The position numbers and the translations under genes were made by a program. From assembly GCA_017625675.1 (NCBI GenBank), contig JAGAKK010000024.1:1-40521 (forward strand): a stretch of DNA of 40,521 bases, given 5' to 3'. Below are positions 6,462-16,175 of this stretch, one piece after another. How positions within the stretch are numbered: position 1 is the stretch's first letter; every line of letters starts with the position of its first letter. A model generated the notes under the pieces. The model was given only the letters and a program-made list of their open reading frames with translations. It was not told the DNA's origin and did no database searches. Origin of the DNA: Clostridia bacterium. GTDB lineage: Bacteria; Bacillota; Clostridia; UBA1212.

Positions 6462-7463
6462 ATGGAAAAAAATGTAAGACCCGAATCAATGAAAAGAATT
6501 ACAACTCCAGAGCTTGCTAATGCTTTTATTGACGAGCAGGTAAAAGAAATCAAGGCCCAGGTTGGTGACCGCAAGGTGCTTCTGGCTCTTTCAGGCGGCG
6601 TTGACTCCTCAGTTGTTGCAGCGCTTCTTATCAAGGCTATCGGCAAGCAGCTCGTCTGCGTGCACGTAAACCATGGACTTATGAGAAAGGGCGAAAGCGA
6701 AGCTGTTATTGACATGTTTGGCAAAGTTCTTGACGCTAATCTTATTTACGTAGACGCTACAGACCGTTTCCTCAATCTTCTTGCAGGTGTCAGTGAGCCT
6801 GAGAAGAAAAGAAAGATTATCGGCGCTGAGTTTATAAACGTTTTTGCTGATGAAGCACGAAAGCTTAAAGACATTGACTTTTTGGCACAGGGTACAATTT
6901 ACCCCGACATTCTCGAAAGCATAAAAGCTGCAGAGGGCAAAAAGGCAGTAAAATCACACCACAATGTTGGCGGTCTGCCTGAAGATTTAAAATTCGAATT
7001 GGTAGAGCCTATAAAGCTTCTCTTTAAAGACGAGGTTCGCGTGGTAGGCGAGGCATTAGGTCTTCCCCACGCAATGGTTTACCGTCAGCCGTTCCCGGGC
7101 CCCGGCCTTGGTGTTCGTTGCCTCGGAGCAATCACCCGCGACAGACTTAACGCGCTCCGCGAAGCAGATGCTATTTTGCGTGAAGAGTTTGACAAATGCG
7201 GACTTGCAGAAAAGGTATGGCAGTACTTCATTGCAGTGCCTGACATCAAGAGCGTTGGCGTGAAGGACGAGAGCCGTTACGAAGGCTGGCCTGCAATTAT
7301 CCGCGCCGTTAATACAAAAGACGCAATGACTGCCACAATCGAAGAAATTCCTTACGAAATTCTTCACAAGATTACGTACAGAATCACCCATGAGGTAGAG
7401 GGCATCAACAGAGTGCTGATGGATCTTACCCCGAAGCCTATTGGAACGATTGAGTGGGAATAA
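6462..7463 (+). CDS. guaA: GMP synthase ATP-pyrophosphatase subunit without glutaminase domain
   Basis: A 333-residue GMP synthase synthetase module that adenylates XMP and aminates it to GMP. The PP-loop SGGVDSS is at residues 44-50. HVNHGLMRKGE, the QGTIYPD block, SHHNVGGLP and the dimerisation domain with QPFPGPGLGVRCLG follow, and it ends in the family-typical TIEWE. The usual bacterial GuaA (about 510 residues) carries an N-terminal class I glutaminase of about 190 residues that is absent here. The frame has a clean start with AAGGAGGG and is not truncated. This is the two-subunit layout known from archaea, so a separate GATase subunit or free ammonia is needed. None is in the window. 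A terminator follows. Confidence 0.93.
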   Translation: MEKNVRPESMKRITTPELANAFIDEQVKEIKAQVGDRKVLLALSGGVDSSVVAALLIKAIGKQLVCVHVNHGLMRKGESEAVIDMFGKVLDANLIYVDATDRFLNLLAGVSEPEKKRKIIGAEFINVFADEARKLKDIDFLAQGTIYPDILESIKAAEGKKAVKSHHNVGGLPEDLKFELVEPIKLLFKDEVRVVGEALGLPHAMVYRQPFPGPGLGVRCLGAITRDRLNALREADAILREEFDKCGLAEKVWQYFIAVPDIKSVGVKDESRYEGWPAIIRAVNTKDAMTATIEEIPYEILHKITYRITHEVEGINRVLMDLTPKPIGTIEWE

Positions 7464-7528
7464 GTTGGAAGTATTTAAAGGCAATTTATGCTATCTGAAA
7501 AATTGGAAAAATATACAACAAAAACAGA

Positions 7529-7559
7529 CCTTGAGAAAAATTTTTCTCGAGGTTTTTTT
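7529..7559 (+). terminator. Rho-independent terminator after guaA
   Basis: A 12-bp stem (CCTTGAGAAAAA/TTTTTCTCGAGG, one G-T pair) with almost no loop, then seven T. It separates the housekeeping operon from the island to the right. Confidence 0.8.
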
Positions 7560-7591
7560 GATATTATTGCCAAAAGGTTGATGTAATTTGG

Positions 7592-7691
7592 GAAATATGA
7601 TATTATTTCATCTAATAGACATCAAAAACATCAAATTAACACGATATTTTAATGAAATGATATTGCTATTGTTCTAATTTTGGAATATAAT
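7592..7691 (+). promoter_or_regulatory. Promoter and possible operator of the restriction-modification cassette
   Basis: TTGCTA (7663-7668), 17-bp spacer, TATAAT (7686-7691). Upstream, GAAATA/TATTTC at 7592-7609 is a perfect 6-bp inverted repeat with a 6-nt centre, and GAAATGATAT occurs again near 7654. These could bind a controller such as the HTH domain of the first methylase; that link is inference. Confidence 0.55.
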
Positions 7692-7726
7692 CTTACTATA
7701 AATTTGATACGCAAGGAGTGGTAAGT

Positions 7727-8800
7727 ATGTTGGCATATATGACTGCTAACGAGGCTGCTGAAAAATGGAATATATCGCATAGGCGAGTTTTAAAGTTATG
7801 CAAAGAAAAACGCATAGCCGATGTTGCAATGCTGGGTAATATGTGGATAATACCAATTGATGCAAACAAGCCTGAAGATGCAAGAGGTCTACGGTATAAT
7901 AAATCTGAAGAAAAAGTTGTACGGCCTTTTTTGAAGTGGGCAGGCGGTAAAGGTCAACTCCTTAAAGAAATTGAACAATACTACCTTTTTGATAACGGAA
8001 GTATTACAAAATATGCTGAACCATTTGTTGGCGGTGGCGCTGTTTTATTTGATATACTCAGCAAATACGATTTAGAAGAAGTATACATCAGCGATATTAA
8101 CGCTGAACTCATCAATACTTATCGCATTATTCGTGATGACATAGATGCTCTGATTGAAATTCTTTACGCTATGCAGAACGATTTCATTCCATTAGATACG
8201 GATAATCGCAAAGCATATTATATGCAAAGGCGTGAGCGATTTAATGATTTAAAAGTCAACGGAAACGAGGACATCAATATCGAAAAAGCGGCTTTGATGA
8301 TTTTTCTTAATAAAACTTGTTTCAATGGTTTGTACAGAGTCAACAAAAAAGGTTTGTTTAATGTTCCTATGGGAGCATACAAAAATCCGATGATTTGTGA
8401 TGAAAACAATCTTAGAGCAGTATCAGAGAAATTGCAAAGAGTAAATATTGTATGTGGTGACTACAGAGAGTCGGCTGACTTTATTGATGAAAATACTTTT
8501 GTGTATTTTGATCCCCCATACAGACCTATTACAGATACAGCGAGTTTTACCGCATATACTGAGAACTTGTTTAACGATGAAGAACAAATTGAACTTGCTC
8601 GCTTTGTTGATGATATGCACCGAAAAGGAGCAAAGGTTGTAATAAGTAATTCAGACCCAAAGAATTCTGATATCGAGGACGATTTTTTTGATAGTATTTA
8701 TTCGTCTCATAAAATCAAACGAGTAGATGCTAACCGAATGATTAATTGCAATAGTGAGGCAAGAGGAAAAATTAAAGAGTTACTTATTAGCAATTTTTAA
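7727..8800 (+). CDS. dpnM: Dam/DpnM-type adenine-N6 DNA methyltransferase with N-terminal HTH domain
   Basis: A 357-residue D12-class m6A methyltransferase. The SAM site is FLKWAGGKGQLL (68-79) followed by AEPFVGGGAVLFDI (97-110), and the catalytic DPPY is at residues 262-265. Because a DpnII-like nuclease is two genes downstream, the expected target is GATC. Unlike the standalone enzyme (about 280 residues), it carries about 60 extra N-terminal residues (MTANEAAEKWNISHRRVLKL) forming an excisionase/MerR-like helix-turn-helix of the HTH_17 type, plausibly for autoregulation. The start is ATG 7727 with AAGGAG 8 nt upstream; GTG 7718 lies inside that ribosome site. It is first gene of an AT-rich cassette. 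Confidence 0.92.
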   Translation: MLAYMTANEAAEKWNISHRRVLKLCKEKRIADVAMLGNMWIIPIDANKPEDARGLRYNKSEEKVVRPFLKWAGGKGQLLKEIEQYYLFDNGSITKYAEPFVGGGAVLFDILSKYDLEEVYISDINAELINTYRIIRDDIDALIEILYAMQNDFIPLDTDNRKAYYMQRRERFNDLKVNGNEDINIEKAALMIFLNKTCFNGLYRVNKKGLFNVPMGAYKNPMICDENNLRAVSEKLQRVNIVCGDYRESADFIDENTFVYFDPPYRPITDTASFTAYTENLFNDEEQIELARFVDDMHRKGAKVVISNSDPKNSDIEDDFFDSIYSSHKIKRVDANRMINCNSEARGKIKELLISNF

Positions 8801-8815
8801 GGAGAACAAATAATT

Positions 8816-9352
8816 ATGATAAAGAATGGAAAAGGCGGAGGTAACACCAAAACAGGACTTGTCTTTGAAGGGAAAACTGATTTATCCACCTTCTTAAATA
8901 ATCAAGAGGGGTACCGTGTGACTGATGGCATTGTGTTTTATAACGACGAAAAAGTTGCTCGCATATTCAAAAAGCACGATTTTTATAAATATTTAAAAGA
9001 AGTCGGCGTTGATTGGAAAAAAATCATTTCTAAAAAACTTCTGCCGGACGACAGTATTTATGTAATTATCAACAACACTCTTTTTATTATCGAATGTAAA
9101 TATCAGCAAGTGGCGGGTTCTGTTGATGAAAAATTGCAGACTTGTGATTTTAAAAGAAAGCAGTATCAGAAGTTGATGGCGCAGATCAATATTGATGTGG
9201 AATACATCTATCTGCTTTCGGAGTGGTTCAAAGATCCTAAATACAAGGATGTTTTGGATTATATCATCAGTATGCGTTGCCACTATTATTTTGAATACAT
9301 ACCGCTTACAAAGTTAGGGTTGCCTGTGCCGCCTAATAGCGAGGAGGAATAA
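8816..9352 (+). CDS. PD-(D/E)XK nuclease, probable second restriction endonuclease
   Basis: A 178-residue protein with a textbook PD-(D/E)XK core: Pro77-Asp78, then Glu93-Cys-Lys95 at the end of the next strand (LLPDDSIYVI and FIIECKYQ). The Gly/Asn-rich N-terminus (GKGGGNTKTGLVFEGKTDL) with Glu18 fits type II restriction enzymes. It sits between the GATC methylase and the DpnII-like nuclease, 15 nt after one and 3 nt before the other, with a good AAGGAG site, so it is co-transcribed. It may pair with the methylase at 10234, giving a second specificity, or act as an accessory nuclease. The recognition site is unknown. Confidence 0.75.
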   Translation: MIKNGKGGGNTKTGLVFEGKTDLSTFLNNQEGYRVTDGIVFYNDEKVARIFKKHDFYKYLKEVGVDWKKIISKKLLPDDSIYVIINNTLFIIECKYQQVAGSVDEKLQTCDFKRKQYQKLMAQINIDVEYIYLLSEWFKDPKYKDVLDYIISMRCHYYFEYIPLTKLGLPVPPNSEEE

Positions 9353-9355
9353 GAG

Positions 9356-10234
9356 ATGTCAAGAGATTTTAGTGCGTGGTTGTCAGGCTTTCGTGACAGT
9401 ATCGCAGACTATGGTTATTACATAGATTTTGATAAGGTTCACAGAAATGTGGATGTCATTAAGATTGAACTTAATATTTTAAATTCTCTCATTGGCTCTA
9501 AAAATATCGAAGCCGATTTTGAGAATTTGATGAGAAAATATCCAGAAGTTTTAAAGTGTATTCCTCTGCTCCTAGCAGTTAGAGCAAATGAAATATACTG
9601 TCAAGATGAAAATGGTGGTCATTTATTCCGATTTAACTTTGGAAAGTATCCACCGAACAGCAACGCTCATTATGAGAGGTACAAATACTTTATGCGTGAA
9701 ACCGGGTTGTTTGATTTGCTAGAAAATCATATCGTGAATAATTTGGTTGACTATGCAACAGGTGTTGAAACAGGTCTTGATTCCAACGGCCGTAAAAATC
9801 GTGGCGGACACCTTATGGAAAATTTGGTTGAGAGCTTTATTCAAAAAGCAGGTTTCGTAAAAGGGGTTAATTACTTTAAAGAAATGTATATCCACCAAAT
9901 TACAGATAAATGGAACATAGACTTATCTGCTATTTCCAATCAAGGCAAGATGGAAAAACGCTTTGATTTTGTAGTTAAGACACCTAATATGATTTATGGT
10001 ATCGAAACGAACTTTTACGGAAGTGGCGGTAGTAAACTTAACGAAACTGCACGTAGTTATAAGACTCTTGCGTGGGAAACCGAAGAAATTGACGGTTTTA
10101 CATTCGTTTGGTTTACCGACGGAAAAGGTTGGACTAGCGCAAGAAACAACCTCGAAGAAACTTTTGACGTTATGCAACACATTTACAATATTAAAGATTT
10201 GGAAGATGGCATAATCAGCGAGGTTTTTAAATAA
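9356..10234 (+). CDS. dpnB: DpnII/MboI-type GATC restriction endonuclease
   Basis: A 292-residue protein that aligns by eye along its length with the pneumococcal DpnII endonuclease (about 288 residues). Shared blocks are LNILNSLIGSKNI, the HIVNNLVDYATGVE segment, DSNGRKNRGG, KRFDFVVK and ETNFYGSGGSKLNETARSYK, plus the C-terminal WFTDGKGW and NNLEETFD. This family cuts unmethylated GATC in double-stranded DNA. Catalytic acids probably lie in the FDFVVK...IETNFY region. The start has GAGGAGG within the tail of the previous gene. It overlaps the following methylase by one base (TAATG). Identification is strong; activity is untested. Confidence 0.94.
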   Translation: MSRDFSAWLSGFRDSIADYGYYIDFDKVHRNVDVIKIELNILNSLIGSKNIEADFENLMRKYPEVLKCIPLLLAVRANEIYCQDENGGHLFRFNFGKYPPNSNAHYERYKYFMRETGLFDLLENHIVNNLVDYATGVETGLDSNGRKNRGGHLMENLVESFIQKAGFVKGVNYFKEMYIHQITDKWNIDLSAISNQGKMEKRFDFVVKTPNMIYGIETNFYGSGGSKLNETARSYKTLAWETEEIDGFTFVWFTDGKGWTSARNNLEETFDVMQHIYNIKDLEDGIISEVFK

Positions 10235-10980
10235 TGGCAAAGAAAATAACAAAATGGGAGCCGGAAGATTTTGAACTGGAAATGACTACGCATTGGTCTT
10301 TTCCTAAACGTGGCGATTGGGCAACCCACGATGCAAAGTGGCGAGGTAATTGGTCACCATACATTCCTCGAAATATTCTGCTCCGCTATTCAAAAGAGAA
10401 CGACTTGGTTCTCGATCAGTTTGCGGGTGGTGGAACTACCCTCGTAGAAGCAAAATTACTAAACCGAAATATTATTGGCGTGGATGTAAATGATGTTGCT
10501 ATTGCTCGTTGTAGAGAAAAGGTTGATTTTGAGCACGAGGGTGCTGACGGTAAGGTTTATATACACAAAGGTGATGCACGTCATTTGGATTTTGTTTCGG
10601 ACAACAGCATTGACCTTATTTGCACTCATCCGCCGTATGCTGATATTATTCAATACAGCGAGGATATTCCTGAAGATTTGTCTTTGTTAAAGGTCAAAGA
10701 TTTTCTTGAGGAAATGAAAAAGGTTGCGGCAGAAAGTTATCGTGTTTTGAAAAAGGACAAGTTTTGTGCTGTTCTTATGGGTGATACACGCCAAAAAGGT
10801 CATATGATACCGATGTCTTTTGATGTTATGCGTATCTTTGAAGAAGCAGGATTTAAACTTAAAGAATTGATTATTAAAGAACAGCACAACTGCAAGGCTA
10901 CGGGATATTGGAAAACAAATAGCGTGAAGTATAATTTTTTGCTTATAGCACACGAGTATCTATTTGTGTTTAGAAAATGA
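10234..10980 (+). CDS. DNA methyltransferase (N4-cytosine/N6-adenine type)
   Basis: A 248-residue SAM-dependent DNA methylase. Motif I is DQFAGGGTT (61-69), motif II acid D84 (IGVDVND) and the catalytic motif IV THPPY (131-135), an SPPY/DPPY variant. The order is SAM motif then PPY, the reverse of DpnA, so it is not the usual second DpnII methylase. A conserved-looking N-terminal block (WSFPKRGDWATHDAKWRGNW) precedes motif I. The small size leaves little room for a target recognition domain. The start overlaps the DpnII stop (TAATG). Likely partner: the PD-(D/E)XK protein at 8816. Target base and site are unknown. Confidence 0.85.
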   Translation: MAKKITKWEPEDFELEMTTHWSFPKRGDWATHDAKWRGNWSPYIPRNILLRYSKENDLVLDQFAGGGTTLVEAKLLNRNIIGVDVNDVAIARCREKVDFEHEGADGKVYIHKGDARHLDFVSDNSIDLICTHPPYADIIQYSEDIPEDLSLLKVKDFLEEMKKVAAESYRVLKKDKFCAVLMGDTRQKGHMIPMSFDVMRIFEEAGFKLKELIIKEQHNCKATGYWKTNSVKYNFLLIAHEYLFVFRK

Positions 10981-10999
10981 TCGATAGGAGGATAATAAT

Positions 11000-12043
11000 A
11001 TGTATGCCGAACGAGTTGAATTATATAAAAAATTAGAAGAGAAACTAGACAGTAAATTACTCGTTTATATTACGAGTGATAGACCTGGATTCGAAGCTAG
11101 CATAGCACAAGATGTGATAGATAAATTTATTAACCAATTAGACAAAATAGGGGTTACTGAAAAAATTTCATTATATTTATATACACGTGGTGGTGACACT
11201 GCTGCTGCGTGGAATATAATTAATTTACTTAGACAATATTGCGATACTTTACAAGTTGTAATTCCTCATAAAGCGCATAGTGCAGGAACGCTTATAAGTA
11301 TCGGAGCAAATTCTATAATAATGACAAAACAAGCCACTTTGGGACCTATCGATCCAAGTGTTAACACTCCACTTAATCCTCCGATACCAAATGCACCGCC
11401 TCAAAACAATTATCCTGTTAGCGTAGAGGCGGTAAAAGGATACTTAGCTTTCGCAAAAGAAGAGTTAGCCATTAAGGATGATATGGCACTTTCAAATATT
11501 ATGATGAAACTCTCTGAATATGTGCATCCACTTGTATTAGGTCAGGTTTACCGTGCGAGGGCTCAAATAAAAATGCTTGCAGAAAAGTTGTTAACCAACC
11601 AAGTAACAGATAGTGCAAAAATCAAAGATATAATAGCTTTTCTTTGTAGTGATTCAGGAAGTCACGATTATACCATTAATCGCAGAGAAGCAAAAAATTC
11701 TCTCGGTTTAAATATTGAAAAACCTAATGATGAAATGTATAATATAATTAAAGAAATATATGATAATATAAGTGATGAACTTGGGTTTGGTGTACCATTC
11801 GATCCATTATCTGTATCACAATCCAATGGTGGAGCATATAATGTAAAAAGAGCTTTAATCGAAAGTGTTTATGGCGGAAGTAATTATTTTGTAACTGAAG
11901 GCGTTGTAAAACAAATTGCTGTGCCGGGCAATCCTGGTCAGGTACCGCAACAAGCGATACAAACCACAAAGATTTTTGAGGGATGGAAATATGAATCAAA
12001 TAACAATAACACAACTGATGATGCTACCGACAATGAATGTTAG
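11000..12043 (+). CDS. SDH_sah family ClpP/crotonase-fold serine protease
   Basis: A 347-residue protein of the SDH_sah (serine dehydrogenase proteinase-like) family, related in fold to ClpP and SppA. YTRGGDTAAAW (61-71) gives the oxyanion strand, HSAGTLIS (93-100) the likely nucleophile Ser94, and TLGPIDP (113-119) a conserved active-site loop. No signal peptide or membrane helix is seen, so it is cytosolic. The C-terminal ~25 residues are Asn/Thr-rich and low complexity. AGGAGG precedes the ATG and the gap to the methylase is only 19 nt, so it belongs to the same operon. A role in regulating or turning over the restriction enzymes is inference. Confidence 0.82.
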   Translation: MYAERVELYKKLEEKLDSKLLVYITSDRPGFEASIAQDVIDKFINQLDKIGVTEKISLYLYTRGGDTAAAWNIINLLRQYCDTLQVVIPHKAHSAGTLISIGANSIIMTKQATLGPIDPSVNTPLNPPIPNAPPQNNYPVSVEAVKGYLAFAKEELAIKDDMALSNIMMKLSEYVHPLVLGQVYRARAQIKMLAEKLLTNQVTDSAKIKDIIAFLCSDSGSHDYTINRREAKNSLGLNIEKPNDEMYNIIKEIYDNISDELGFGVPFDPLSVSQSNGGAYNVKRALIESVYGGSNYFVTEGVVKQIAVPGNPGQVPQQAIQTTKIFEGWKYESNNNNTTDDATDNEC

Positions 12044-12176
12044 TTATAGCGAATCAATTAAAACCAATTACGCAAATTATCAATCAAGTTCTACTACTCA
12101 AAATAGCAATGCATTAATTAATGTGCTAAGCGGTTCAGTGTTGTTAATAGAACATAATGAGATGCTTGAAAAATGA
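11991..12176 (+). CDS. Small hypothetical protein overlapping the SDH_sah gene
   Basis: A possible 61-residue protein (begins MNQITITQLMMLPTMNVSYS) in another frame, starting 53 nt before the SDH_sah stop. GAGGG lies 8 nt before its ATG. It is polar and Ser/Asn-rich, with a short hydrophobic stretch near the end. I do not recognise a family. Its placement as the last gene of the cassette, with its own ribosome site, makes it worth recording, but it could be chance. Confidence 0.45.
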   Translation: MNQITITQLMMLPTMNVSYSESIKTNYANYQSSSTTQNSNALINVLSGSVLLIEHNEMLEK

Positions 12177-12480
12177 TAGCAAACCGTGATGGCAAAATGA
12201 TAGCAAAAGTTAGGACTACCTATGTAGATAGGATAATCTAAGACAAAGCAAATCAATTTGTGCTACTATGCTAAAACAAAATCGTTTAAGGTCGGTTTTG
12301 TGGTTGCGAGTGGGAATAATGGCGAATGGCTTACAAGTGCCCGGAAACCCTTGAAAACAAAGGGCTTTCGGGCATTTATGCTTTGTTGAAAAAGGCTTTG
12401 CAACACTTTTGCAACACGCAAGGATAAATTTGCAAAAAAGAAAAAGTTGCAAGTGGCTTTTAAATAGACGGAGGTGTCGC
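12177..12480. other. Intergenic junction with long hairpin and TTGCAACAC repeats
   Basis: No convincing gene is present. A 15-bp near-perfect inverted repeat (12338-12352 with 12360-12374, starting TGCCCGGAAA) has no T run after it. TTTGCAACAC occurs twice in a row (12397-12406 and 12408-12417), and more TTGCAA motifs follow near 12430 and 12448. The left part contains the spaced pattern GCAAAATGATAGCAAAAG. It may be a remnant or attachment region of a mobile element. Confidence 0.4.
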
Positions 12481-13782
12481 ATGGGAACGTGGAATACCAG
12501 TGTTACAGGAAACGATACGGCGGAGGATTTATATAGTGAATATACCGCCGCCTTTTATAAGTTCGATGTAGAAGAAGCTTTGAGCCGGATTGATAAATAT
12601 ATCAGGACAGAAATGTTTGATGAATCCGATGAAGAAGAATGGTGCAATTACATTTATTCACTTGCTGATTTCATGTGGAAGAAAGGTATATTGACGGATT
12701 CGGTACGAAACAAAGCTATTGGAATGATTGACAGCGGATTTGGTTTAGAGTTGTGGGAAGAAGCCGGTCAAAAAACTTTGGTCGCCCGTAAAAAGAAGCT
12801 TGCTGAGTTCAAAGAAAAACTATTGTCGCCACAACCACCAAAGAAGAAAATTAAGCCGGACGCTCACACTGAGCGGATTTTTGACGATGGAGATATCGTT
12901 GCGGTTCAGTTGCAGACCGCCGGAAAGCCATATACGGAACAAGAATCAAAACCGATTTCGGAAAAGGATTTTCATGCTCTTGACGGGAAATACGTGTTGA
13001 TGCAATTGGTGAATTGTTACGCAAGCTGGACGTCAAGTATAGTGCCTGAAGTCAATGATTACTGGGCTTGTTTCCGCTTGTTTGACGGTATTTATGACGC
13101 TGTTCCGGATGATGTAGATTTACTGTCGTTGAAAGACGCATTGATACATCAAGGACACAAGATTACTTCAATCTTCAATTGCGAAAGCAGTATGTTTTAT
13201 TTCAAACGAAGGGATTATAAAGTGATATGCAATAGAAAAGATCTGCTCACGGGTTTAGATACAAACGGCTACAATTCAATTTATTGGGGAGTTAACAGAC
13301 CTTGGTTAAATCCCGACTCACAGCTTGTGGCTGCTATGGGAAAGCAAATTGTCTGCAAAGAGTTTTCGGGCAATATCGAACAGGTTGAGCATATTTGTAG
13401 ATATGCAAATCGTTATGGAAGATTTGATTATAGTTTGTCCCGAGAAGAAAACGAGGCAAGATACATCACGGAAGAAAATATCATTGCAGAAAAAATCAAT
13501 AAAGTAATTTCAGACGGCGGAAAACTGTATAGCATATCTTTGGGTAGAGAAATCGGAATCGTCACAGTACATAACGGACATATAGATAATCTATACATTG
13601 AGGGGCAGTATCAACGTAACGGATTTGGTACTCGGCTGCTTGAATATGCGTTGTCAATAGGCGGGAGCGGTGCATATATTGATGTGCCTATGTCAAACAA
13701 CGAGTTGATGCATATTTGTGACAAATTGGGCTTGATTAAAGTAAAAGAAACGGGGCAAATAGTTCGAATGGCGAAGCCATGA
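12481..13782 (+). CDS. DUF4259-like/GNAT multidomain protein, possibly immunity-type
   Basis: A 433-residue protein. Residues 1-110 resemble DUF4259 (begins MGTWNTSVTGNDTAEDLYSE), a family often found beside polymorphic toxins. The middle (about 135-230: DDGDIVAVQLQ, DGKYVLMQLVNCYASW, FRLFDGIYDAVP) looks like an Imm26-type immunity domain. The C-terminal ~90 residues are a GNAT acetyltransferase, with the acetyl-CoA loop EGQYQRNGFGTRLLEYAL around 370-388. The start is ATG 12481 with GGAGG; an upstream in-frame ATG at 12409 lacks a site. No toxin gene is adjacent. Fusion of immunity-like and acetyltransferase domains suggests modification of a toxin or its target; this is inference. Confidence 0.7.
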   Translation: MGTWNTSVTGNDTAEDLYSEYTAAFYKFDVEEALSRIDKYIRTEMFDESDEEEWCNYIYSLADFMWKKGILTDSVRNKAIGMIDSGFGLELWEEAGQKTLVARKKKLAEFKEKLLSPQPPKKKIKPDAHTERIFDDGDIVAVQLQTAGKPYTEQESKPISEKDFHALDGKYVLMQLVNCYASWTSSIVPEVNDYWACFRLFDGIYDAVPDDVDLLSLKDALIHQGHKITSIFNCESSMFYFKRRDYKVICNRKDLLTGLDTNGYNSIYWGVNRPWLNPDSQLVAAMGKQIVCKEFSGNIEQVEHICRYANRYGRFDYSLSREENEARYITEENIIAEKINKVISDGGKLYSISLGREIGIVTVHNGHIDNLYIEGQYQRNGFGTRLLEYALSIGGSGAYIDVPMSNNELMHICDKLGLIKVKETGQIVRMAKP

Positions 13783-13796
13783 GCCGGGCTTTCTCG

Positions 13797-14267
13797 TCAT
13801 TCTTCTGCATTAACTAAATCAATTTCCAATAGTTCGGGCATGTGTTTATACAAAATGCTCAGGACCTCCCGTTTGTTTTGCAGGACAAGGTCTATCAAAA
13901 AGTTATTGTTGTGAAAAATAAACGGATAACCTGTAAAATCATTGACTTCCATTGTTAGCGGTGACATGCAGCCGTCAAATGACTTGCTGATGAACCGTTC
14001 TTTTTTTATCCAGTTTTTGTCAAGGTGGATTGCTTCCGGGTTGACAATGTATTTCTCATCAATCTCCACAATTTCTTTTTCGCGGTGTTTCCAAGGAATA
14101 AAGATAACGTATAATGGAGTATTCAGGGTCCTGTGTTCATAAACGCTTTTTGATTTCCACAAGAATTTCTTTGTGCGTGTGTGAACTTCATCGTGGGGAC
14201 GACAGTATTTTGCTAACAAGATGCCTTTAATGATTTTGCCATTATCGAAGAATGCTATTTCTACCAT
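13797..14267 (-). CDS. Hypothetical protein, convergent with the DUF4259-GNAT gene
   Basis: A 156-residue protein I do not recognise. It begins MVEIAFFDNGKIIKGILLAK and is rich in Lys, Ile, Phe and Trp. No signal peptide, membrane helix or clear motif is seen. It is a real gene by its ribosome site (GGAAAGGAG on the minus strand, about 7 nt before ATG). It converges on the DUF4259-GNAT gene with a 14-nt gap and no obvious terminator between them. AT-rich codon use matches the island. Confidence 0.7.
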   Translation of the reverse strand: MVEIAFFDNGKIIKGILLAKYCRPHDEVHTRTKKFLWKSKSVYEHRTLNTPLYVIFIPWKHREKEIVEIDEKYIVNPEAIHLDKNWIKKERFISKSFDGCMSPLTMEVNDFTGYPFIFHNNNFLIDLVLQNKREVLSILYKHMPELLEIDLVNAEE

Positions 14268-14344
14268 TTTTAATACTCCTTTCCTTGTTTTGTTGATTGT
14301 TTTATTGTCTCATATTATAATTAATAATTAAAGCGGAAAAACGA

Positions 14345-14551
14345 TTGCCGGAGATAGGTTTGAGTTTTTTTTCGGCAGGGACTTGCACGAAGCCTCGGAT
14401 AAATCAGGACGCAGTGCGTTTGATGAAGGATCTTTACGGTATTGATATGGAGAAAGATCAATACAGCAAGACGGGGCAGAACGATGAGACTTTTAAAATT
14501 GTTATTGAGGATATTGAAAAGAAAGTAAGAGAGTTTGTAGTTGCAATTTAA
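14345..14551 (+). pseudogene. Remnant of ArsC-like low-molecular-weight protein tyrosine phosphatase
   Basis: The frame keeps a conserved mid-N segment (SAGTCTKPRINQDAVRLMKD, then YGIDMEKDQYSK) and then jumps to a typical C-terminal segment (TGQNDETFKIVIEDIEKKV). In intact ArsC-like LMW phosphatases the CxxNxCRS catalytic loop precedes the first block, and about 35-40 residues including the DDP acid loop separate the two blocks. Both are missing. The frame has a stop at 14318 and no ribosome site. I read it as a pseudogene with an N-terminal loss and an internal in-frame deletion, marking the right edge of the island. Confidence 0.7.
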
Positions 14552-14563
14552 TGTATTAAAGTC

Positions 14564-14592
14564 TTGAATTGTTTTGAGAAATGGTGTATAAT
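14564..14592 (+). promoter_or_regulatory. Sigma-A promoter of the symporter gene
   Basis: TTGAAT (14564-14569), 17-bp spacer, consensus TATAAT (14587-14592); the start codon is 51 bp downstream. Confidence 0.65.
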
Positions 14593-14642
14593 CAATCATT
14601 ATCGTATTTTTTTGATGAATTTTGCAGAAAGGGAAAATGTTT

Positions 14643-16175
14643 ATGCAAATATTGGCGTTTGTTTTGTATTTTGTTTTGATTCTGGGAATCGGTCTTTTCT
14701 TTTTCTTCCGTTCCAAAAATGATGGAGAGAAGGAATATTTCCTTGGGGGAAGGTCAATGGGTCCTTGGGTAACGGCTATGAGTGCTCAGGCCTCGGATAT
14801 GTCCGGTTGGCTTTTGATGGGTTTCCCCGGAAGTATTCTTGCCTTTGGTATGGGAAAAGTATGGATTGGAATAGGTCTTGCCTTGGGAACTGCTGCAAAT
14901 TGGATTTTTGTAGCAAAGAGACTTCGTCGTTTTTCAAAGGCATCAGGTGATTCAATTACGTTGCCTCAGTACCTTACCAACCGTTTTGCGTCTCAGAGTC
15001 CTGTGCTGAAGATCGTTTGCGCTGTTATCTTTTTAATAAGTTTTACAGTGTACGTTGCTTCTGCTTTCGTTGCGGGAAAGAGTGTGTTGGTGGCGGTTAT
15101 TCCTTGGTTTGCGGATAAAGAGTTGTTGGCAATGGCTCTTTTTGCCCTGTTGATTCTGATATACACGTTCCTTGGTGGATACAAGGCTGTTTGCTGGACG
15201 GATTTCTTCCAGGGACTTATGATGCTGGTGGCTTTGTTGGCAGTGCCTATTGTTATGGCGCTGGGTAATTTTGACGCATCTTTCAGCGGTGCTTTTGCGG
15301 AAGGCGTTACTGCTTTTGAGTCAAATCCCTTTACAGCGGACTGGCGGGATATCGTAACAGGACTTTCCTGGGGATTGGGATACTTCGGAATGCCCCACAT
15401 TATCGTGCGTTTTATGGGAATTCAGAAACCCTCTCAGGTTAAGAAGGCGTCTACCGTAGCAATAGTATGGGTTGTTCTCACCTTGGGTAGTGCTATTGCA
15501 TTGTCGATTTTAGGAAGAACCTTCCTTTTGTCAGAAGGTACCCCTTTGGCTGAAAAACTTTTGATGGCAGGCGCACAGGAAAAGATATTTATCACTTTGG
15601 TTCAGGATATTTTCCCGCCTATCATCGCAGGCCTTCTTCTTGCGGCTATCGTTGCGGCGGCAATGTCAACGGCGGATTCTCAGCTCCTGGTGGCATCTTC
15701 CTCTTTTACAAGTGACCTGTACAAACCCCTTATCAGAAAGGATAAAGCATCCGATAAGGAAATTCTTTGGGTAGGTCGTATCGTTGTTTTGGCAGTAAGC
15801 GTAGTGGCGTTCTTCATTGCGGCAAGCGGAACGGGCTGGGCAAGCAGCATTATGAGCATGGTTGAAAATGCATGGGGATTGTTCGGCGCGGCATTCGGCC
15901 CTGTTGTTTTGTTCTCCCTTTTCTGGAAGAGAATGAACTACACGGGAGCTTGCGCAGGTATTATTACCGGTGCGGCTGTGGATATTTTGTGGTTGCTTTG
16001 CTTCACAAATACCATTACAGATGCGCTTGTTGCTCCTACGGGAATATATGAGATATTGCCCGGATTTATCGCAGGCGCAATTGCCACAGTGGTTGTTTCT
16101 CTCTGCACCAAGAAGCCTTCGGCTGAGGTTGACGGAATTTTTGAGACGGCAACAGACGTGAGCGTTGACGATTAA
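14643..16175 (+). CDS. putP: Sodium/solute (proline-type) symporter, SSS family
   Basis: A 510-residue integral membrane transporter of the SSS family, closest in appearance to PutP Na+/proline symporters. About 13 hydrophobic segments are visible. Hallmarks are EYFLGGRSMGPWVTAMSAQA followed by SDMSGWLLMGFPG near the first two helices, and the helix-8 region IVAAAMSTADSQLLVASSSF, whose Ser/Thr residues bind Na+ in this family. The start is ATG 14643 with GAAAGGG at a 9-nt spacing; ATG 14637 is too close to the site. It is monocistronic, between its own promoter and a strong terminator. Substrate is likely proline or another small carboxylate. Confidence 0.88.
   Translation: MQILAFVLYFVLILGIGLFFFFRSKNDGEKEYFLGGRSMGPWVTAMSAQASDMSGWLLMGFPGSILAFGMGKVWIGIGLALGTAANWIFVAKRLRRFSKASGDSITLPQYLTNRFASQSPVLKIVCAVIFLISFTVYVASAFVAGKSVLVAVIPWFADKELLAMALFALLILIYTFLGGYKAVCWTDFFQGLMMLVALLAVPIVMALGNFDASFSGAFAEGVTAFESNPFTADWRDIVTGLSWGLGYFGMPHIIVRFMGIQKPSQVKKASTVAIVWVVLTLGSAIALSILGRTFLLSEGTPLAEKLLMAGAQEKIFITLVQDIFPPIIAGLLLAAIVAAAMSTADSQLLVASSSFTSDLYKPLIRKDKASDKEILWVGRIVVLAVSVVAFFIAASGTGWASSIMSMVENAWGLFGAAFGPVVLFSLFWKRMNYTGACAGIITGAAVDILWLLCFTNTITDALVAPTGIYEILPGFIAGAIATVVVSLCTKKPSAEVDGIFETATDVSVDD

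What the first reader, a model, noticed from the sequence alone, without database searches (positions are those of the whole stretch)
7727..12176. Interleaved double restriction-modification cassette with a serine protease
Five or six genes run in one direction with gaps of -53 to +19 nt: GATC methylase, PD-(D/E)XK nuclease, DpnII-like nuclease, second DNA methylase, SDH_sah protease and a small ORF. DpnII systems normally have one nuclease plus DpnM and DpnA. Here the second methylase has the opposite motif order to DpnA, and an extra nuclease is inserted between the GATC methylase and its nuclease. This suggests two restriction systems fused into a single operon, or a new composite defence module in which the protease controls or is triggered by restriction. 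The DpnII pair is recognised from family knowledge; the composite function is inference.
Basis: partly seen in the sequence, partly recalled or inferred. Interest (0 to 1): 0.85.

Follow-up and report, generated by a model that had tools for sequence, protein, structure and literature searches.

The report
GATC restriction cassette with two nucleases
A small mobile DNA island carries one restriction system that marks its own DNA at GATC and appears to use two unrelated cutting enzymes, next to a separate protease-plus-small-protein pair that elsewhere travels in bacterial viruses; the two-cutter arrangement recurs in many bacteria, but the protease is not part of it.

Summary
The reading [quoted passage not shown] fails.

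Among 64 other R2 loci, M1-R2-DpnII-M2 in this order recurs in about 11, and DpnII+R2 together in 21 of 59 rows of the R2 tree, with at least 4 gains or losses. R2 never pairs exclusively with M2: it also lies beside DpnA-type GATC methylases alone (10 loci) or Dam alone (1). M2 accompanies DpnII without R2 in 18 of 21 sampled loci. What R2's partners share is GATC. Best reading: one GATC system with two unrelated nucleases. All four genes are under purifying selection. M1 and M2 bracket a slot that elsewhere holds other nucleases or defence genes.

No homologous cassette carries the protease. Its 53-61% relatives lie in temperate-phage contigs, often near the antiterminator gene, and 42 of 44 have an overlapping small ORF: a separate two-gene phage module. 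Both modules sit in a 4.9-kb low-GC island at the guaA 3' end between GAGTGGGAATAA repeats.

Activity, site and protease function are untested.

The parts
6462..7463 (+). guaA (GMP synthase subunit); its 3' end is the insertion target
   Evidence: Homologues in 9 of 9 genomes of the family; R2 and SDH were found in none of the other 8.
7452..7463 (+). candidate left att core GAGTGGGAATAA (last 12 nt of guaA)
   Evidence: Only two copies in the window at up to 1 mismatch, here and at 12308. The GIsul2 guaA core is GAGTGGGA (PMC9376610).
7526..7555 (+). intrinsic terminator-like hairpin between guaA and the cassette
   Evidence: Scan; fold of 7510-7570 has z = -6.2.
7663..7691 (+). candidate cassette promoter TTGCTA-17-TATAAT
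   Evidence: Consensus match only; 34 such sites in the region against 20 expected.
7727..8800 (+). M1: Dam-family GATC adenine methylase with N-terminal HTH_17 (about 7736-7855)
   Evidence: dN/dS 0.06-0.10 against six cassettes.
8816..9352 (+). R2: small PD-(D/E)XK nuclease, PDDEXK_11; P77-D78...E93-x-K95 invariant in 48 sequences
   Evidence: AlphaFold2 pLDDT 85; dN/dS 0.02-0.05 where calculable.
9356..10234 (+). DpnII-family restriction endonuclease (GATC)
   Evidence: PF04556 374 bits; PADLOC REase_II 336 bits; dN/dS 0.03-0.07.
10234..10980 (+). M2: permuted N6/N4 methylase, motif I before THPPY
   Evidence: dN/dS 0.02-0.04 where calculable.
11000..12043 (+). SDH-type ClpP-like serine protease; S94, D118, H176 and H222 invariant in 10 homologues; second module
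   Evidence: (phrog_11747, unknown function, 212 bits).
   Evidence: Such an ORF follows 42 of 44 phage SDH genes against 51 of 146 control genes (Fisher p about 1e-13).
12240..12319 (+). conserved right end of the island, finishing at the second GAGTGGGAATAA (12308-12319)
   Evidence: 95% identical over 80 nt to L039; similarity stops there in L039 and L038.

Best explanation
The locus holds two unrelated modules side by side in a 4.9-kb remnant of an integrative element at the 3' end of guaA. Module A (M1-R2-DpnII-M2) is a single-specificity GATC restriction-modification cassette. M1 (Dam-type) methylates host GATC and may autoregulate through its HTH. DpnII and the unrelated nuclease R2 both cut unmethylated GATC DNA, so incoming DNA meets two structurally different cutters controlled by one mark. 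M2, a permuted methylase, protects a GATC form that M1 handles poorly (single-stranded, hemimethylated or another base), the role DpnA has in classical DpnII systems. Module B (SDH protease plus an overlapping small protein) is a phage-type accessory pair, possibly an exclusion or defence device, which landed downstream and takes no part in restriction. Shown here: gene content, conservation, partner statistics, selection and att-like ends. Inferred: R2's cutting site, M2's target, the function of B.
For: R2 always lies with GATC methylases where the flanks are long enough: M1+M2 (about 24 loci without DpnII), M1+DpnA-type (5), DpnA-type alone (10), M1 alone (L050), and with DpnII in 21 (viral contigs agree). 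M1 and DpnA families share only GATC. DpnA-type identity: PADLOC PDLC03371; the same family lies on Lactococcus pSRQ700 between a Dam and a DpnII-family nuclease gene. M2 accompanies M1 in 20 of 21 and DpnII in 18 of 21 sampled loci, with R2 in none. DpnII+R2 arose or was lost at least 4 times, 7 by parsimony, in several gene orders. All four genes show dN/dS of 0.02-0.10. SDH is absent from 64 R2 loci but linked to a small ORF in 42 of 44 phage loci and to a Q-type antiterminator in 18 contigs. Island: GC 35% against 44% in the rest of the window; repeats; a fuller element in L038 with integrase, NikA-like and Mob_Pre genes at guaA.
Against: R2's site is inferred from its partners only; no REBASE or biochemical record could be consulted. 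Three cassettes (L139-L141) hold M2 as well as a DpnA-type methylase, so M2 is not a simple DpnA replacement. M2's THPPY motif does not identify the methylated base. GATC avoidance in the window (72 seen, 115 expected) is not specific, since CTAG, CATG and GGCC are avoided at least as much. The GAGTGGGAATAA repeat is short.
Confidence: 0.72

Rival explanations
1. Two complete restriction systems are interleaved: M1+DpnII for GATC, and R2+M2 for a second sequence, so two motifs are methylated.
For: Two methylases and two nucleases of different families lie in one operon; in about 24 loci R2 and M2 co-occur with no DpnII.
Against: In those loci M1 is present too. R2 occurs with a DpnA-type methylase only (10 loci) or M1 only (L050); M2 occurs without R2 in all 21 sampled class loci.
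Confidence: 0.1
2. R2 is a GATC nuclease with a different substrate from DpnII (single-stranded, hemimethylated or modified phage DNA), and M2 protects that substrate in the host; the pair widens the range of phages cut. (A sharper form of the best explanation, so its probability overlaps with it.)
For: The two nucleases are unrelated, both constrained, and repeatedly combined, usually with two methylases around them.
Against: R2 works as sole nuclease beside one methylase in 10 or more loci, which suggests an ordinary restriction enzyme. No direct data.
Confidence: 0.3
3. The protease and small ORF are functional parts of the restriction cassette: restriction triggers the protease, or the protease destroys the nuclease when methylation fails.
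For: It lies 19 nt downstream of M2 and inside the same att-like repeats. A 50% homologue (L128) lies upstream of an HsdM-like fragment (identified by eye).
Against: No SDH in 64 related loci. Close relatives lie in phage contigs without such a cassette and keep their own small partner.
Confidence: 0.05
4. R2 is a decaying passenger left by recombination, with no function.
For: R2 is rare in the class: 2 of 291 genomes; broken copies exist (L092, L093, Neisseria L172).
Against: dN/dS 0.02-0.05; invariant catalytic residues in 48 sequences; rows from about 10 phyla.
Confidence: 0.03

Closest known systems
DpnII / LlaDCHI / MboI type GATC systems (Dam-like methylase, DpnA-like methylase, DpnII-family nuclease)
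   Same: Dam-family M1 and DpnII-family nuclease in one operon with a second methylase. Lactococcus pSRQ700 shows Dam, DpnA-like and DpnII-family genes in a row.
   Different: A second, unrelated nuclease (R2) is present; M2 has the opposite motif order to DpnA and is a different PADLOC family (PDLC03376 against PDLC03371).
SsuDAT1I of Streptococcus suis (two methylases, two isoschizomeric nucleases)
   Same: Precedent for two nucleases of one specificity behind shared GATC methylases. Recalled from memory: Sekizaki 2001 is cited in PMC5198162, but the paper itself is not held.
   Different: As recalled, its nucleases are DpnII-like and LlaDCHI-like; the pSRQ700 nuclease (LlaDCHI, as I recall) is 37% identical to this DpnII, so both are one family, whereas R2 is of another.
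Neisseria NgoAXI / drg / dam locus
   Same: A 53% R2 homologue lies beside a DpnA-type gene and the DpnI-family drg gene next to leuS. The locus is GATC-specific (PMC6789123, PMC4269198).
   Different: The R2 and DpnA genes are broken there, and Drg cuts methylated GATC.
guaA-integrated genomic islands and IMEs (GIsul2, ATE-1)
   Same: 3' end of guaA as site, GAGTGGGA core (PMC9376610, PMC5704250); a fuller relative with integrase and mobilisation genes is L038.
   Different: No integrase or relaxase remains in the window's island.
PHROG 11747 / SDH-family ClpP-like proteases
   Same: Match over residues 5-261 at 212 bits, Ser-Asp-His pattern conserved.
   Different: Far below the NCBIfam Clp_like_SDH cut-off (77 against 250 bits); function unknown.

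Membership tests
DpnII-type GATC restriction-modification system | Dam-family methylase next to a DpnII-family nuclease | tested here: met
   (with R2 between them).
DpnII-type GATC restriction-modification system | second methylase of the DpnA (beta) family | tested here: not met
   M2 has motif I before IV; PDLC03376, not PDLC03371.
DpnII-type GATC restriction-modification system | single nuclease | tested here: not met
   R2 lies between M1 and DpnII.
DpnII-type GATC restriction-modification system | methylation and cleavage at GATC | not testable with these tools
   Inferred from families only.
SsuDAT1I-like dual-isoschizomer system | two nucleases sharing one specificity | tested here: inconclusive
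   Partner statistics point to GATC for R2; no cleavage data.
Two independent interleaved R-M systems | R2 and M2 co-occur as an exclusive pair | tested here: not met
PD-(D/E)XK nuclease superfamily (R2) | PD...ExK residues and core fold | tested here: met
   P77 D78 E93 K95 invariant; Pfam PDDEXK_11 in 48 of 48; model pLDDT 85. Foldseek hits are to this fold but weak, TM about 0.4 at most.
Integrative mobilisable element at guaA | direct repeats of the guaA 3' end at both borders | tested here: met
   GAGTGGGAATAA at 7452 and 12308.
Integrative mobilisable element at guaA | integrase and mobilisation genes | tested here: not met
   Absent between the repeats; present in relative L038.
SDH-family serine protease | SDH domain and conserved Ser-Asp-His | tested here: met
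   63.5 bits against cut-off 31.3; residues invariant in 10.

The most novel reading that the evidence does not exclude
R2 is an unrecognised family of GATC restriction nucleases spread over about ten phyla. The M1...M2 methylase pair forms a general protected slot into which different nucleases (R2, DpnII, Mrr-like and others) are repeatedly plugged, with R2 and DpnII attacking different forms of GATC DNA. Separately, the SDH protease with its overlapping small protein is an uncharacterised phage-borne two-gene exclusion or defence module.
Probability: 0.3. Interest if true: 0.7.

Novelty: new variant of a known kind. Interest (0 to 1): 0.52.

Why it matters
If right, GATC systems are modular: one methyl mark licenses several unrelated nucleases, which would make it hard for a phage to escape by blocking one enzyme. 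R2 matches no model in PADLOC or NCBIfam, so a widespread restriction-enzyme family would be going unlabelled there. The conserved protease-small ORF pair gives phage biology a defined, testable module of unknown function.

Tried and rejected
Exclusive R2-M2 pairing: rejected by partner counts. Protease as part of the cassette: rejected. M2 as a plain replacement of DpnA: weakened by L139-L141, which hold both. R2 as decaying gene: rejected by dN/dS. GATC avoidance as evidence of activity: depleted, but not specifically. R2 in solved structures by sequence: nothing meaningful; by fold: weak PD-(D/E)XK hits only, XisH, arenavirus endonuclease and BstEII. Rfam scan of 7000-15000: nothing. The Mrr-like slot gene as the LlaDCHI nuclease: not supported, because the pSRQ700 nuclease matches DpnII instead. 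Literature for R2's domain, or for methylase-bracketed nuclease slots: nothing found. Sekizaki 2001 not held.
Full report
**What is there.** Six ORFs run on the + strand. Their families were checked with Pfam, NCBIfam and PADLOC: a Dam-family methylase with an N-terminal helix-turn-helix (M1), a 178-residue PD-(D/E)XK nuclease (R2), a DpnII-family nuclease, a second methylase (M2), an SDH-type serine protease and a small ORF. The window lies on contig 11 of a 1.65-Mb, 76%-complete genome.

**The four-gene cassette is real.** A scan of the genome collection with R2 gave 64 other loci. Annotating them with profiles built here shows M1-R2-DpnII-M2 in the window and about 11 others, in different clostridial families. 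Other loci have M1-DpnII-R2-M2 or DpnA-type (L041, L049, L061, L067, L078, L079), M1-DpnII-M2-R2 (L083) or, cut by the contig end, DpnII-M2-R2 (L077). On an R2 tree of 59 rows from about 10 phyla, presence of DpnII changes 7 times by parsimony, at least 4 of them forced by well-supported branches. Between the window and six cassettes, dN/dS is 0.02-0.10 for all four genes where calculable. The combination has been assembled or lost repeatedly and is maintained.

**One specificity, not two.** If R2 and M2 were a second system they should travel together. They do not. R2 lies beside a DpnA-type methylase as sole methylase in 10 loci, beside M1 alone in L050, and beside M1 plus DpnA-type in 5; M2 occurs without R2 in all 21 M2 loci sampled from the class, 20 with M1 and 18 with DpnII. 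R2 loci in viral contigs show the same partners. The DpnA-type neighbours belong to PADLOC PDLC03371; a homologue lies on Lactococcus pSRQ700 between Dam and a DpnII-family nuclease, the plasmid I take, from memory, to carry LlaDCHI; the literature gives LlaDCHI as a GATC system (PMC4190342). A 53% R2 relative in gonococcus sits beside a DpnA-type gene at the GATC locus NgoAXI/drg. The simplest inference is that R2 acts at GATC. This is inference from partners; nothing was cut.

**A slot between the methylases.** Other genes also occupy the M1...M2 interval: a Mrr_cat protein (L034; relatives in L074, L081, L153, L155 and Fusobacterium L173), a GmrSD protein (L075, M2 side cut by the contig end), a TIR protein (L167), a DUF5655 protein (L076) and a DUF6997 protein that matches a PADLOC type II nuclease (L165). 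Ruminococcus bromii L034 has R2, DpnII and the Mrr-like gene together. Whether all of these depend on GATC methylation is unknown.

**The protease is another module.** No SDH homologue was found near any of the 64 R2 loci; in the class the best relative is 50% identical and isolated, though an HsdM-like fragment follows it at a distance. In viral contigs and an E. coli plasmid that carries phage genes, 53-61% relatives occur. In L205 the protease gene lies opposite-strand between antiterminator Q and holin; Q homologues occur in 18 contigs. Of 5426 complete E. coli genomes, 47 carry it. In 42 of 44 phage loci a small ORF (55-81 residues) overlaps or abuts the protease 3' end, against 51 of 146 control genes (Fisher p about 1e-13); among five related phages this ORF shows more synonymous than non-synonymous change. 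The window's small ORF fits if read from ATG 12033. The protease is PHROG 11747, function unknown; the small ORF is in no family, and neither is in PADLOC. An exclusion or defence role is a guess from its position.

**Why they are together.** guaA ends with GAGTGGGAATAA at 7452-7463 and the same 12 nt recur at 12308-12319. GAGTGGGA is the published core of GIsul2 at guaA (PMC9376610), and guaA 3' ends are known IME sites (PMC5704250). The 80 nt up to the end of the second copy are 95% identical in L039, and similarity stops there. L038 is a fuller element at guaA with tyrosine integrase, NikA-like, Mob_Pre and TnpV genes before M1. The island is 35% GC against 44% in the rest of the window, and R2 and SDH were not found in the other eight genomes of the family. 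The best inference is that both modules are cargo of one integrated element that has lost its mobility genes.

**Limits.** R2's site, M2's base and substrate, and any protease function are untested. The partner counts come from one R2-seeded scan and one class sample. The precedent of SsuDAT1I rests on memory because the paper was not held.

Noticed in passing
window 11000-12176; L189-L195, L205-L253: SDH protease plus overlapping small Ser/Thr-rich ORF is a conserved two-gene unit of temperate phages, often near the antiterminator Q gene; function unknown (PHROG 11747).
   Followed up: yes
L034:4495-5349, L173:4166-4984, L074, L081, L153, L155: A Mrr_cat nuclease of about 280 residues recurs inside the GATC methylase pair; possibly a third GATC-controlled nuclease.
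   Followed up: partly
L167:7648-8253, L075:5837-7432, L165:640-1908: TIR, GmrSD and DUF6997 (PADLOC type II nuclease) proteins also occupy the interval between M1 and the other cassette genes.
   Followed up: partly
L139, L140, L141: Cassettes with three methylases (M2, Dam, DpnA-type) and DpnII.
   Followed up: no
L035, L037, L039, L040, L043, between M1 and R2: In these loci about 215 nt separate M1 from R2, against about 15-25 nt in the window and others; an extra element may lie there.
   Followed up: no
window 12325-12385: Strong hairpin (-27 kcal/mol, z -5.8) just outside the right att-like repeat; no Rfam match.
   Followed up: no
L172:2155-4414: Gonococcal locus with DpnI-family drg followed by broken DpnA-type and R2 genes: remnants of a GATC system beside a methyl-dependent nuclease.
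   Followed up: partly
L128:5089-5496: HsdM-like N-terminal fragment downstream of the 50% SDH homologue; noted by eye, the only restriction gene seen near an SDH relative in the class.
   Followed up: no
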